IMG/VR virus record: IMGVR_UViG_3300036795_000289 | Location: 1 to 31,046 of that record | Strand: one strand, 5' to 3' | Source of the DNA: a virus | DNA length: 31,046 bases | Shown: positions 9,555 to 14,567 of the stretch, piece by piece | Position numbering within the stretch: position 1 is the first letter of the stretch | How the letters are laid out: each line of letters begins with the position of its first letter | Translations under genes and position numbers: made by a program | The notes under the pieces: model-generated | Told to the model about the DNA's origin: nothing | The model's database searches: none | The model's input: the letters and a program-made list of their open reading frames with translations, nothing else

Positions 9555-9680
9555 CGGCGGAAGATGCGGGTTCGAATCCTGCCCGGGCTCTTGAGAGGCC
9601 GGCACTCATGCGAGTACGCGTTGCGGAAAGCCTGTGCCGGCCGAGCCCGGTAGCTCAAGTGGCAGAGCACCGCGTTAACT
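9555..9680 (+). other. Candidate circularly permuted tRNA gene 1
   Basis: A 3' half comes first: anticodon-stem strand 9556-9560, T-arm with TTCGAAT at 9571-9577, and acceptor strand 9583-9590. A 5' half follows: acceptor strand 9643-9650, TA, D-arm 9653-9668 with GG, and anticodon-stem strand 9670-9674. The two acceptor strands pair perfectly over 8 bases. A second 9-pair helix (9597-9605 with 9634-9642) closes the linker between them. The 3' half starts right after the tRNA-Ala discriminator. The right boundary is uncertain; a hairpin of two GGTGCACC copies (9686-9693, 9707-9714) follows. The anticodon cannot be fixed. Confidence 0.5.
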
Positions 9681-10026: not shown

Positions 10027-10100
10027 CTGGCTATGGCGCAGCTTGGTAGCGCACTGCGTTCGGGACGCAGGGGCCGCAGGTTCGAATCCTGCTAGCCAGA
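10027..10100 (+). tRNA. tRNA-Pro (CGG)
   Basis: Perfect CTGGCTA/TAGCCAG acceptor, anticodon 10061-10063 in TTCGGGA, TTCGAAT T-loop. Confidence 0.92.
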
Positions 10101-10174
10101 CGCAAGCAGGAAATCCCGGTTCAACTCCGGGCGAGGGCTCCGGCCTGGTAGTTCAGCGGTCTGAACGCCTGTGA
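10101..10174 (+). other. Candidate circularly permuted tRNA gene 2 (exactly 74 nt)
   Basis: Fills the whole interval between tRNA-Pro(CGG) and tRNA-Pro(TGG), so tRNA end processing on both sides would release a 74-base RNA. Order: anticodon-stem strand GCAGG 10106-10110, T-arm CCCGG-TTCAACT-CCGGG 10115-10131, acceptor strand 10132-10138, three-base linker, acceptor strand 10142-10148, TA, D-arm GTTC/GAAC 10151-10166 with GG, anticodon-stem strand CCTGT 10168-10172. Joining the ends gives a 7-base loop. The acceptor has five pairs and two G-G mismatches, and position 33 would be A, so charging is doubtful. Confidence 0.5.
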
Positions 10175-10247
10175 CGGGAATGAGGGAGACGGCTAACCCG
10201 CCTGCTTTGGGAGCAGGACAAACTCGGTTCGATTCCGAGATTCCCGA
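10175..10247 (+). tRNA. tRNA-Pro (TGG)
   Basis: Perfect CGGGAAT/ATTCCCG acceptor, anticodon 10208-10210 in TTTGGGA. G rather than U at position 8. Confidence 0.88.
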
Positions 10248-10307
10248 CCGGCCCTTCGGGGCTACCCGGGCAACAGGCCACGCCGCAAGGCGGCTGTCCC
10301 GGGCTTT
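10248..10307 (+). other. Structured spacer
   Basis: CCCGGG at 10265-10270 pairs with CCCGGG at 10298-10303, enclosing CAG/CTG and a CGCC-GCAA-GGCG tetraloop hairpin. A small GCCC-TTCG-GGGC hairpin precedes it. Confidence 0.45.
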
Positions 10308-10837: not shown

Positions 10838-10936
10838 CAAACGGCTGGCAAGGCCGTCCTGCGAATCCTTGCCCGGCCCCCTCTGCGGGAGGAACAGGTC
10901 CGTCAATCCGGGGCCAGCAAAGAGCCCCGGCAACAA
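10838..10936 (+). other. Structured spacer
   Basis: Holds a GGCAAGG/CCTTGCC pairing and a 7-pair hairpin CCGGGGC/GCCCCGG just before the next tRNA. No ORF or tRNA. Confidence 0.4.
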
Positions 10937-11009: not shown

Positions 11010-11092
11010 CGGCGGAAGGTCGCGGGTTCGAGTCCCGCCTGGCCTCCCCGGAAGGGGCGTCCGGTAGCTCAGCGGCCAGAGCACCCGCAACC
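11010..11092 (+). other. Candidate circularly permuted tRNA gene 3
   Basis: Same order as the other two: 3' half (anticodon-stem strand 11011-11015, T-arm GCGGG-TTCGAGT-CCCGC 11022-11038, acceptor strand 11039-11045) directly after the tRNA-Gln discriminator, a CCCC-GGAA-GGGG tetraloop (11046-11057), then the 5' half (acceptor strand 11058-11064, TA, D-arm 11067-11082, anticodon-stem strand near 11085-11088). The acceptor has five pairs and two mismatches. It is followed by nested hairpins: 11091-11097 with 11137-11143, and 11110-11125. Weaker than candidates 1 and 2. Confidence 0.4.
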
Positions 11093-11433: not shown

Positions 11434-11444
11434 CCTGAGGGAGA

Positions 11445-11465
11445 GCCGCCGTGGCGCACCGGCAG
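11445..11465 (+). repeat. Duplicated tRNA 5' part before tRNA-Thr(TGT)
   Basis: GCCGCCG-TG-GCGC... repeats, with changes, at 11483. This copy has the D-loop GG that the second copy lacks, and either could pair with the acceptor 3' strand at 11543-11549. Confidence 0.5.
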
Positions 11466-11482
11466 AAAGAACACCCTCTCTA

Positions 11483-11550
11483 GCCGCCGCGCGCAACCGC
11501 GGCCTGGCCCTTGTAAGGCCGGAGGTCCGGGGTAGCACCGGACGGCGGCT
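11483..11550 (+). tRNA. tRNA-Thr (TGT), degenerate
   Basis: GCCGCCG/CGGCGGC acceptor, TGGCC/GGCCG anticodon stem, loop CTTGTAA. The D-arm is a short CGCG hairpin without GG and the T-loop is GGTAGCA instead of TTCNANN, so the D-loop/T-loop contact is lost on both sides. Using the upstream duplicate (11445) would give a 106-base tRNA with an enlarged D-loop. Confidence 0.5.
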
Positions 11551-11555
11551 CCCGG

Positions 11556-11939: not shown

Positions 11940-11944
11940 GGCAT

Positions 11945-12028
11945 GGAGAGTGACCCGGCCAGGGTGCCGGGACCCGTTGCTAGCGGGATCGCGGCCCCGG
12001 CCGTGGCGTTCGAGTCGTCCGCTCTCTG
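11945..12028 (+). tRNA. tRNA-Ser (GCT)
   Basis: GGAGAGT/GCTCTCT acceptor, CCCG/CGGG anticodon stem, anticodon 11979-11981, long variable arm, TTCGAGT T-loop, G73. G at position 8 is unusual. Confidence 0.8.
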
Positions 12029-12047
12029 CTTGAACGTAGTAGTTAGT

Positions 12048-12524
12048 ATGCCTTCCGAAACTTCTTGTGCCTGGGCCGCCGGGATTCTAGACGCCGACGG
12101 GTGCGTTACTATGCGTCCGCCATCAGGCGGTAAGTTCCGGTCCCCGTACCTTGTCGTGGACTCTACGGATATAGAGATACTTGACGAGCTGGTTGCTAGC
12201 TTTGGCGGGCGCATCTACCCGAAGAAGACTCGCAACGAGCGCTGGCGTCAGCAGTGGTCCTGGCGCATGCACGGAACCGTAGGCATCTTGGAGTTTCTGC
12301 GCCTGGTCGTCCCGTACATGCGGTGTCCAACCAAGGTGGCTCGTGCTCGGATGTTGCTTGACGAGTACCCGGTCCTGACCCAGCGCAACGGCTGGTACAC
12401 ACCTGAGCAGCGGGCGGCAAAGTTCGACATGGAGGACCGCTTCATGGCCATTGGCTACGGCCGGGGAGCCAGCCTGCGAGCCCTCCGACGAGAACCTGGA
12501 AGTGTGAGCCGAGCTTCGGCCTAA
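12048..12524 (+). CDS. Single-motif LAGLIDADG homing endonuclease
   Basis: 158 residues from the ATG at 12048. Near the N-terminus lies WAAGILDADGCVTM, the LAGLIDADG dimer-interface helix with its catalytic acidic end; only one copy is visible, so the enzyme would act as a homodimer. TDIEILDELVASFGGRIYPKK and WSWRMHGTVGILEFLRLVVPYM follow the family's beta-alpha pattern. Such enzymes cut long, partly conserved sites and spread by repair. The gene stands free between tRNA-Ser(GCT) and tRNA-Ser(AGA), and its stop lies inside the latter. T-rich codon use differs from the neighbours, suggesting recent transfer. No ribosome site is seen; TTGAAC and GTAGTAGTTAG lie just upstream. Confidence 0.82.
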   Translation: MPSETSCAWAAGILDADGCVTMRPPSGGKFRSPYLVVDSTDIEILDELVASFGGRIYPKKTRNERWRQQWSWRMHGTVGILEFLRLVVPYMRCPTKVARARMLLDEYPVLTQRNGWYTPEQRAAKFDMEDRFMAIGYGRGASLRALRREPGSVSRASA

Positions 12525-12587
12525 CGGCAGCTGTCTAGAAAACAGTCAGGGGTAACTCCCGTGTGGGTTCGAGACCCACCACTTCCT
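12498..12587 (+). tRNA. tRNA-Ser (AGA)
   Basis: GGAAGTG/CACTTCC acceptor, loop CTAGAAA, long variable arm, TTCGAGA T-loop. The first 27 bases also encode the end of the LAGLIDADG protein. Anticodon A34 for serine is rare in bacteria, and 73 is T rather than G. Confidence 0.8.
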
Positions 12588-14400: not shown

Positions 14401-14567
14401 TGGGAAGTGGTGTAAGGGCCAAGCCGGGCCAGCTCGTGCGCACGAGCGAAGCCCGGGGAGGATTCCCCCTCCTGAGGGGCGCGGAACCCATGGATAACCG
14501 ACGCCCTGAAACAGCACGCCCCGGGTCCAACCGGGGCGGTCCTGGTGCCAATCCAGGCTTCCCAGCC
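14401..14567 (+). other. Non-standard tRNA-like element B with large insertion
   Basis: TGGGAAG (14401-14407) pairs perfectly with CTTCCCA (14558-14564), followed by G. TG and a short D-arm-like stretch follow the 5' strand; a T-arm-like CCTGG-TGCCAAT-CCAGG precedes the 3' strand. About 120 bases lie between: a palindromic hairpin (CTCGTG/CACGAG within CCGGGC/GCCCGG), a GGAGG/CCTCC hairpin, and a second T-arm-like CCCCGG-N6-CCGGGG. It could be a tRNA with an insertion, two fused tRNA parts or another structured RNA. No tag-peptide reading frame was found, so a tmRNA is unlikely. Confidence 0.4.

What the first reader, a model, noticed from the sequence alone, without database searches (positions are those of the whole stretch)
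10101..10174. A 74-base circularly permuted tRNA-like gene exactly between two tRNA-Pro genes
Seen: the interval between the discriminator of tRNA-Pro(CGG) and the first base of tRNA-Pro(TGG) is 74 bases, the length of a tRNA. It contains, in this order, anticodon-stem 3' strand, T-arm with TTCAACT, acceptor 3' strand, a 3-base linker, acceptor 5' strand, D-arm with GG and anticodon-stem 5' strand. Joining the ends would give a 7-base anticodon loop. Known: permuted tRNA genes exist in some archaea and algae and need end joining. Inference: maturation of the neighbours would free it; a phage or host RNA ligase could close it, or it may serve as a tRNA decoy. Two acceptor G-G mismatches and a non-U at 33 weaken a role in translation.
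Basis: partly seen in the sequence, partly recalled or inferred. Interest (0 to 1): 0.85.

Follow-up and report, generated by a model that had tools for sequence, protein, structure and literature searches.

The report
Phage tRNA-mimic RNA between tRNA genes
Between two ordinary tRNA genes this phage carries a small RNA that folds like a tRNA with its ends moved to the anticodon and its amino-acid end sealed; it is one of a family of such tRNA look-alikes, built like the tRNA-mimic part of bacterial Y RNAs, and is probably not a working tRNA.

Summary
Bases 10101-10174 hold a 3' tRNA half, a short linker and a 5' tRNA half, flush between tRNA-Pro(CGG) and tRNA-Pro(TGG). By itself the pairing is only modestly unlikely (about 0.006), but the element is not alone. 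Over a dozen more permuted elements lie in tRNA gaps of this window and related phages, and others lie outside arrays. Their halves complement each other specifically: 91% of acceptor pairs form, all seven positions change on both sides, and non-cognate halves pair poorly. The order (closing stem, T-arm, sealed acceptor arm, D-arm) is that of the Rfam YrlA model, the tRNA-mimic Y RNA that partners Ro60. Cultured actinophages, including the nearest cultured relative Magritte, carry such elements beside Ro60 genes. The array-embedded elements lack the Ro-binding stem, and no Ro60 was found in twelve relatives. The acceptor arm is often capped by a stable tetraloop (UNCG here). End-joining gives loops of inconsistent length, and no RNA ligase was found. 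So the ligated permuted tRNA is unlikely. I favour a Y-RNA-type tRNA mimic released by tRNA processing, possibly a decoy for tRNA-directed enzymes; that function is untested.

The parts
10101..10174 (+). permuted tRNA-like (YrlA-type tRNA mimic) element, the finding
   Evidence: identical in L004 13819-13892 except the N of a UNCG loop
10106..10110 (+). anticodon-stem 3' strand GCAGG (closing stem, 5' side)
   Evidence: pairs 10168-10172, 5/5 incl. one G-U
10115..10131 (+). T-arm CCCGG-TTCAACT-CCGGG
   Evidence: 5/5 pairs, TTC.A loop
10132..10148 (+). acceptor-like region; native fold 4-bp hairpin 10135-10138/10143-10146 capped by UCCG
   Evidence: tRNA register 5/7
10149..10167 (+). T8-A9, D-arm GTTC-AGCGGTCT-GAAC, position 26
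10168..10172 (+). anticodon-stem 5' strand CCTGT (closing stem, 3' side)
10027..10100 (+). upstream tRNA-Pro(CGG), defines the 5' end of the element
10175..10248 (+). downstream tRNA-Pro(TGG), defines the 3' end of the element
9555..9674 (+). second permuted element, between tRNA-Ala(GGC) and tRNA-Ala(CGC); acceptor 7/7, 54-nt linker domain
   Evidence: (50.8 bits); Rfam YrlA 33.9 bits sub-threshold; homologs L004, L012, L132
11010..11088 (+). third permuted element, between tRNA-Gln(CTG) and tRNA-Thr(CGT); acceptor arm extended, CCCC-GGAA-GGGG cap
   Evidence: (58.5 bits); Rfam YrlA 29.7 bits sub-threshold; homologs L001 14761-14840, L004 15250-15329

Best explanation
10101-10174 is a tRNA-mimic RNA of the YrlA (bacterial Y RNA) topology. 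The chain enters and leaves through the anticodon stem; T-arm and D-arm can form the tRNA elbow; the acceptor arm is a sealed hairpin. It is transcribed within the phage tRNA array and released when RNase P cuts the 5' end of tRNA-Pro(TGG) and 3'-end processing trims tRNA-Pro(CGG). It is neither ligated nor charged. Having a tRNA body but no acceptor end and no anticodon loop, it most likely acts by occupying proteins that bind tRNA bodies: either nucleases or other defence enzymes aimed at tRNA (decoy), or host RNA-processing and decay factors, as proposed for YrlA. Shown here: the anatomy, the family, the co-variation, the YrlA topology, and the link to Ro60 genes in cultured relatives. Inferred: expression, release, elbow formation, decoy function. 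Identity as a selected YrlA-type mimic about 0.65; the specific decoy role about 0.3.
For: A model built only from in-silico rotated ordinary tRNAs ranks ten permuted elements first (69.8-50.8 bits), above every tandem tRNA junction (best 49.1); the finding scores 39.8. Seventeen elements: acceptor cells 90.8% paired, all 7 pairs changed on both sides, covariation 0.840 against 0.206 shuffled and 0.05-0.21 slid. Cognate halves pair better than re-paired ones (p<=1e-5); detection blind to pairing gives the same. Position-homologous Ala-Ala elements in window, L001, L004, L012, L132 have different but complementary acceptor strands. The RF02553 (YrlA) consensus has the same order and matches L002 20241-20339 over its full length at 37.9 bits, like Magritte's Ro-adjacent element at 36.6. 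Magritte, Pumpernickel, Quantum, Atuin and Tonenili encode Ro60/TROVE; permuted elements lie close to the Ro60 gene in Magritte, Quantum, Atuin and Tonenili and about 2.4 kb away in Pumpernickel. Tetraloop caps: UNCG (window and L004 Pro-Pro), GAGA (L001), GGAA (window, L004), GAAA (L002, L124), UUCG (Magritte). PMC7790460: YrlA's tRNA-like domain is not cut by the anticodon nuclease and may inhibit it.
Against: The finding itself lacks the Ro-binding stem and scores only 11.1 bits with RF02553. No Ro60 in twelve relatives by two searches. Its own pairing is modest (5/7) and its fold energy unremarkable. It has one near-identical homolog (L004) and none elsewhere in IMG/VR or 84,980 genomes. 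No expression data.
Confidence: 0.6

Rival explanations
1. Decayed remnants of tandem tRNA duplications: the outer halves of two copies were lost, leaving 3' half then 5' half of one tRNA, complementary by descent and without function.
For: Halves look tRNA-derived; gaps differ strongly between close relatives; the finding has two G-G mismatches.
Against: Homologous Ala-Ala elements differ in acceptor sequence yet remain complementary; covariation far above shuffles; sealed tetraloop caps recur; elements also sit outside arrays beside Ro60 genes.
Confidence: 0.15
2. Structured spacer: the element only insulates neighbouring tRNAs during folding or processing of the polycistronic transcript and has no role after release.
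For: Flush with both tRNAs; many other gaps hold unrelated structured sequences in the same position.
Against: Any hairpin would do, yet T-arm, D-arm and matched acceptor strands are kept; many neighbours need no spacer (gaps of 0-1 nt).
Confidence: 0.15
3. A true circularly permuted tRNA gene, closed by an RNA ligase and opened at the linker to give a translating tRNA.
For: Joined ends give a 7-nt loop GACGCAA with anticodon CGC; RNase P and tRNase Z would leave 5'-P/3'-OH ends (general knowledge). Pumpernickel and Weasels2 carry RtcB.
Against: A33 instead of U33; acceptor 5/7 with a UNCG cap; joined loops inconsistent across the family; no ligase found in the relatives; tRNA-Ala(CGC) already present.
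Confidence: 0.06

Closest known systems
YrlA bacterial Y RNA, tRNA-like domain (Rfam RF02553; Chen et al. 2014 RNA 20:1715, known to me from memory and as cited in PMC9569102; reviewed in PMC8394870)
   Same: Identical order: closing stem, T-arm, sealed acceptor arm, D-arm (consensus line); stable acceptor cap; phage carriers; such elements beside Ro60 genes in cultured relatives.
   Different: The array elements end at the anticodon stem, flush with tRNAs, with no Ro-binding stem; no Ro60 found in their phages; several per array; the finding itself does not score with RF02553.
Circularly permuted tRNA genes of algae and Thermofilum pendens (PMC3978253, PMC3218864)
   Same: 3' half upstream of 5' half with a short linker between the acceptor strands.
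   Different: The T. pendens and compared C. merolae cases are joined at position 59/60 through a BHB motif and mature via a circle; here the break is at the anticodon, end-joined loops are irregular and the acceptor is often capped.
GOLLD and ROOL phage RNAs (PMC12286853)
   Same: Structured phage RNAs of unknown function near tRNA islands.
   Different: Hundreds of nt and unrelated folds; no Rfam match here.
Permuted two-piece tmRNA
   Same: A permuted tRNA-like domain, opened at the acceptor.
   Different: tmRNA has a tag-coding part and a reduced D-arm; here a full D-arm and no tmRNA match.

Membership tests
YrlA / bacterial Y RNA | tRNA-like domain in the order closing stem, T-arm, sealed acceptor arm, D-arm | tested here: met
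   fold; RF02553 consensus structure
YrlA / bacterial Y RNA | Ro60-binding stem formed by the RNA's 5' and 3' ends | tested here: not met
   Only 5 and 2 nt outside the closing stem before the flanking tRNAs; no GGTTATC-type motif nearby
YrlA / bacterial Y RNA | Ro60 (TROVE) gene in the same genome or nearby | tested here: inconclusive
   Absent in 12 relatives, present in nearest cultured relative Magritte; the window is only a 31-kb fragment
YrlA / bacterial Y RNA | Rfam RF02553 score at or above the gathering cut-off (69 bits) | tested here: not met
   11.1 bits; but Magritte's Ro-adjacent elements also reach only 36.6 and 24.6
circularly permuted tRNA gene | Halves complementary and in reversed order | tested here: met
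   (family); 5/7 and 5/5 for the finding
circularly permuted tRNA gene | End joining restores a standard anticodon loop with U33 | tested here: not met
   7 nt but A33 for the finding; 6-11 nt between positions 30 and 40 in other flush elements
circularly permuted tRNA gene | Circular RNA intermediate and mature CCA-ended tRNA | not testable with these tools
   needs RNA from infected cells
functional phage tRNA | Standard cloverleaf in gene order, scored by tRNA finders | tested here: not met
   only the 3' half matches the tRNA model, 19.7 bits
tmRNA | tmRNA model or ARAGORN tmRNA match | tested here: not met
   (only a 17-nt T-arm piece of the neighbouring Ala-Ala element, 9.5 bits)

The most novel reading that the evidence does not exclude
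Phages with large tRNA arrays interleave real tRNAs with Ro-independent tRNA mimics (a tRNA body without acceptor end or anticodon) that are released by the same processing enzymes and shield the tRNA pool by occupying host tRNA-directed nucleases during infection.
Probability: 0.25. Interest if true: 0.78.

Novelty: new variant of a known kind. Interest (0 to 1): 0.52.

Why it matters
It explains an apparently impossible permuted tRNA in a bacterial phage without inventing a ligation pathway, by linking it to Y-RNA tRNA mimicry. If the array-embedded mimics are made and act without Ro60, tRNA mimicry is a broader phage strategy than the Ro60-Y RNA particle, and whether the tRNA-like domain alone blocks anticodon nucleases becomes directly testable. 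It also warns that orphan tRNA halves in phage arrays should not be annotated as pseudogenes or ligated tRNAs.

Tried and rejected
Megablast of the array against phages: no match. Nested parse (tRNA inserted in the anticodon loop of another tRNA, so the 5' half pairs with the next gap's 3' half): rejected by inspection of L002's three consecutive gaps, where cognate strands fit and neighbours do not. RNA ligases: PF09414 and PF01139 gave no hit in 8 records, PF09511 uninformative; Pumpernickel and Weasels2, which are annotated with RtcB, were not in that set. Rfam at gathering threshold: only tRNA. R1 hits below about 49 bits are dominated by ordinary tandem tRNA junctions, so the model cannot by itself call the finding. 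RF02553 also scores tandem junctions (27.8 bits at window 14126), so weak YrlA scores inside arrays are not proof. The 746-aa protein beside L002's Y-like cluster as a Ro60 homolog: hhalign probability 0.1%, no Pfam or PDB match, AlphaFold model poor (pLDDT 35.7), so not claimed. Selection caveat: L083, L004 Gln-Leu and the Magritte element in A8 were not chosen blind to pairing, and anticodon-stem registers were chosen by fit; the blind set is.

Full report
What was checked. The window is a 31,046-base virus record from IMG/VR with a terminase, Mu-like portal and phage capsid E proteins and about 33 tRNA genes between 9211 and 14754. The nearest cultured relative by terminase (46%) and capsid (48%) is Microbacterium phage Magritte. 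Seven syntenic relatives were found first and more later, most on contigs of 124-152 kb. The tRNA order is conserved but the gaps differ.

The finding. Acceptor pairing in tRNA register is 5/7 and the anticodon stem 5/5. Non-cognate halves of ordinary array tRNAs do as well in 0.6% of cases. The predicted fold is the rotated cloverleaf, but the acceptor arm is a 4-bp hairpin GGGC/GCCU with a UCCG loop. In L004 the same element, after tRNA-Pro(GGG), differs only by UUCG for UCCG, so the one change seen keeps a UNCG tetraloop. A pattern search found this element nowhere else in IMG/VR or in one genome per species of 84,980 prokaryotes.

A family. Orphan 3' halves followed by orphan 5' halves occur in other gaps: window 9555-9674 and 11010-11088, and gaps of L001, L002, L004, L007, L012, L014, L124, L132, L142. 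In L002 three consecutive gaps are each filled by one. Others lie outside arrays (L002 20249-20318, L017, L083). A scan choosing T-arm and D-arm without looking at acceptor pairing found 12 in the family with 5-7 of 7 acceptor pairs, against two hits with 2/7 pairs in 66 other relatives. Re-pairing halves at random never reached the observed pairing (p<=1e-5), and ordinary tandem junctions reached 7/7 in 0 of 116. On 17 aligned cores all seven acceptor pairs show changes on both sides, with 90.8% of cells paired and covariation 0.840 against 0.206 shuffled. A covariance model made only from rotated ordinary tRNAs puts ten of these elements above all tandem junctions; the finding itself scores 39.8 bits, inside the junction range.

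Not a ligated tRNA. If the flanking tRNAs are matured exactly and the ends joined, ten flush elements give 6 to 11 nt between positions 30 and 40, where a tRNA has 9; the finding gives 9 but with A33. The acceptor ends are often sealed: UNCG (finding, L004), GAGA on a 9-bp stem (L001 Gln-Thr), GGAA (window and L004), GAAA (L002 distal, L124), UUCG (Magritte). In the Ala-Ala gap of window, L004, L012, L132 and in L142 the loop is replaced by a longer domain with a shared motif GTACGCNTNGCGGAAMGCC. RtcB and PF09414 ligases were not found in the relatives tested. Known permuted tRNAs of algae and Thermofilum mature through a BHB motif and a circular intermediate (PMC3978253; PMC3218864).

What it is. 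The consensus structure of Rfam YrlA (RF02553), the tRNA-mimic Y RNA bound by Ro60, has the same order: outer stems, closing stem, T-arm, sealed acceptor arm, D-arm. Five cultured array phages, Magritte included, encode Ro60/TROVE proteins. Tandem permuted elements stand directly before Magritte's Ro60 gene, and others lie close to the Ro60 genes of Quantum, Atuin and Tonenili; Pumpernickel's lies about 2.4 kb from its Ro60 gene. RF02553 matches Magritte's at 36.6 bits and L002's distal element at 37.9 bits over the full model, both below the gathering score of 69. So the apparent permuted tRNA is the YrlA kind of tRNA mimic. The array-embedded members, the finding included, lack the Ro-binding stem, and Ro60 was not found in twelve relatives. 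They are therefore not filed as YrlA; they share its tRNA-like domain.

How it most likely works. Inference: the element is part of the tRNA transcript, is released when its neighbours are matured, and persists as a compact RNA with a tRNA elbow but no acceptor end and no anticodon. YrlA's domain is a substrate of tRNA modification enzymes and is reported to bind PNPase (PMC8394870); it is not cut by the Salmonella anticodon nuclease and was proposed as its competitive inhibitor (PMC7790460). A decoy for tRNA-directed enzymes is thus the most economical function, at about 0.3. A passive structured spacer and a decayed remnant remain possible. None of this is tested by expression data.

Noticed in passing
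L002 17867-20107 and 20100-20620; L014 17495-19864 and 19880-20290; L144 3383-5461 and 5462-5849; L145 3443-5530 and 2948-3442: A roughly 690-790-aa protein of unknown function (phrog_33734-like) recurs in four phages beside clusters of tandem Y-RNA-like hairpins (motif GGCCAN..CTTCCTTCT or TTACTTC); one or two units in L002 and Weasels2 carry a permuted tRNA. A possible Ro60 analogue without detectable TROVE homology.
   Followed up: partly
window 9590-9643; L004, L012, L132, L142: The loop of the Ala-Ala-gap permuted element holds a separate conserved RNA domain (GTACGCNTNGCGGAAMGCC).
   Followed up: partly
window 10839-10936 and homologous Leu(CAA)-Gln(CTG) gaps in L001, L002, L005, L006, L007: A conserved structured sequence of about 96 nt (GGCTGGCAAGGCCGTCCTGCGAATCCTTGCCCGG...) with no Rfam match; other gaps (Gly-Lys, Met-Asn, Pro/Phe-Gly) also hold conserved structured sequences.
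   Followed up: no
window 14401-14567 and 11442-11554: Two tRNA-like genes with correct outer acceptor pairing but large inserts (CTGGGAA/TTCCCAG; a Thr(TGT)-like gene at the place where relatives have intact tRNA-Thr(TGT)); not called by ARAGORN.
   Followed up: no
window 12498-12587: An additional long-variable-arm tRNA (36.1 bits, Ser-like) missed by ARAGORN.
   Followed up: no
window 11943-12524: ORF with a LAGLIDADG-like motif (GILDADG) inside the tRNA array, probably a homing endonuclease; no Pfam hit.
   Followed up: no
L090 2238-3476 and 9988-11655; L144 8618-9197: Pumpernickel carries RtcB-like ligase and Ro60 near its tRNAs; Weasels2 carries RtcB about 3 kb from its Y-like RNA cluster.
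   Followed up: no
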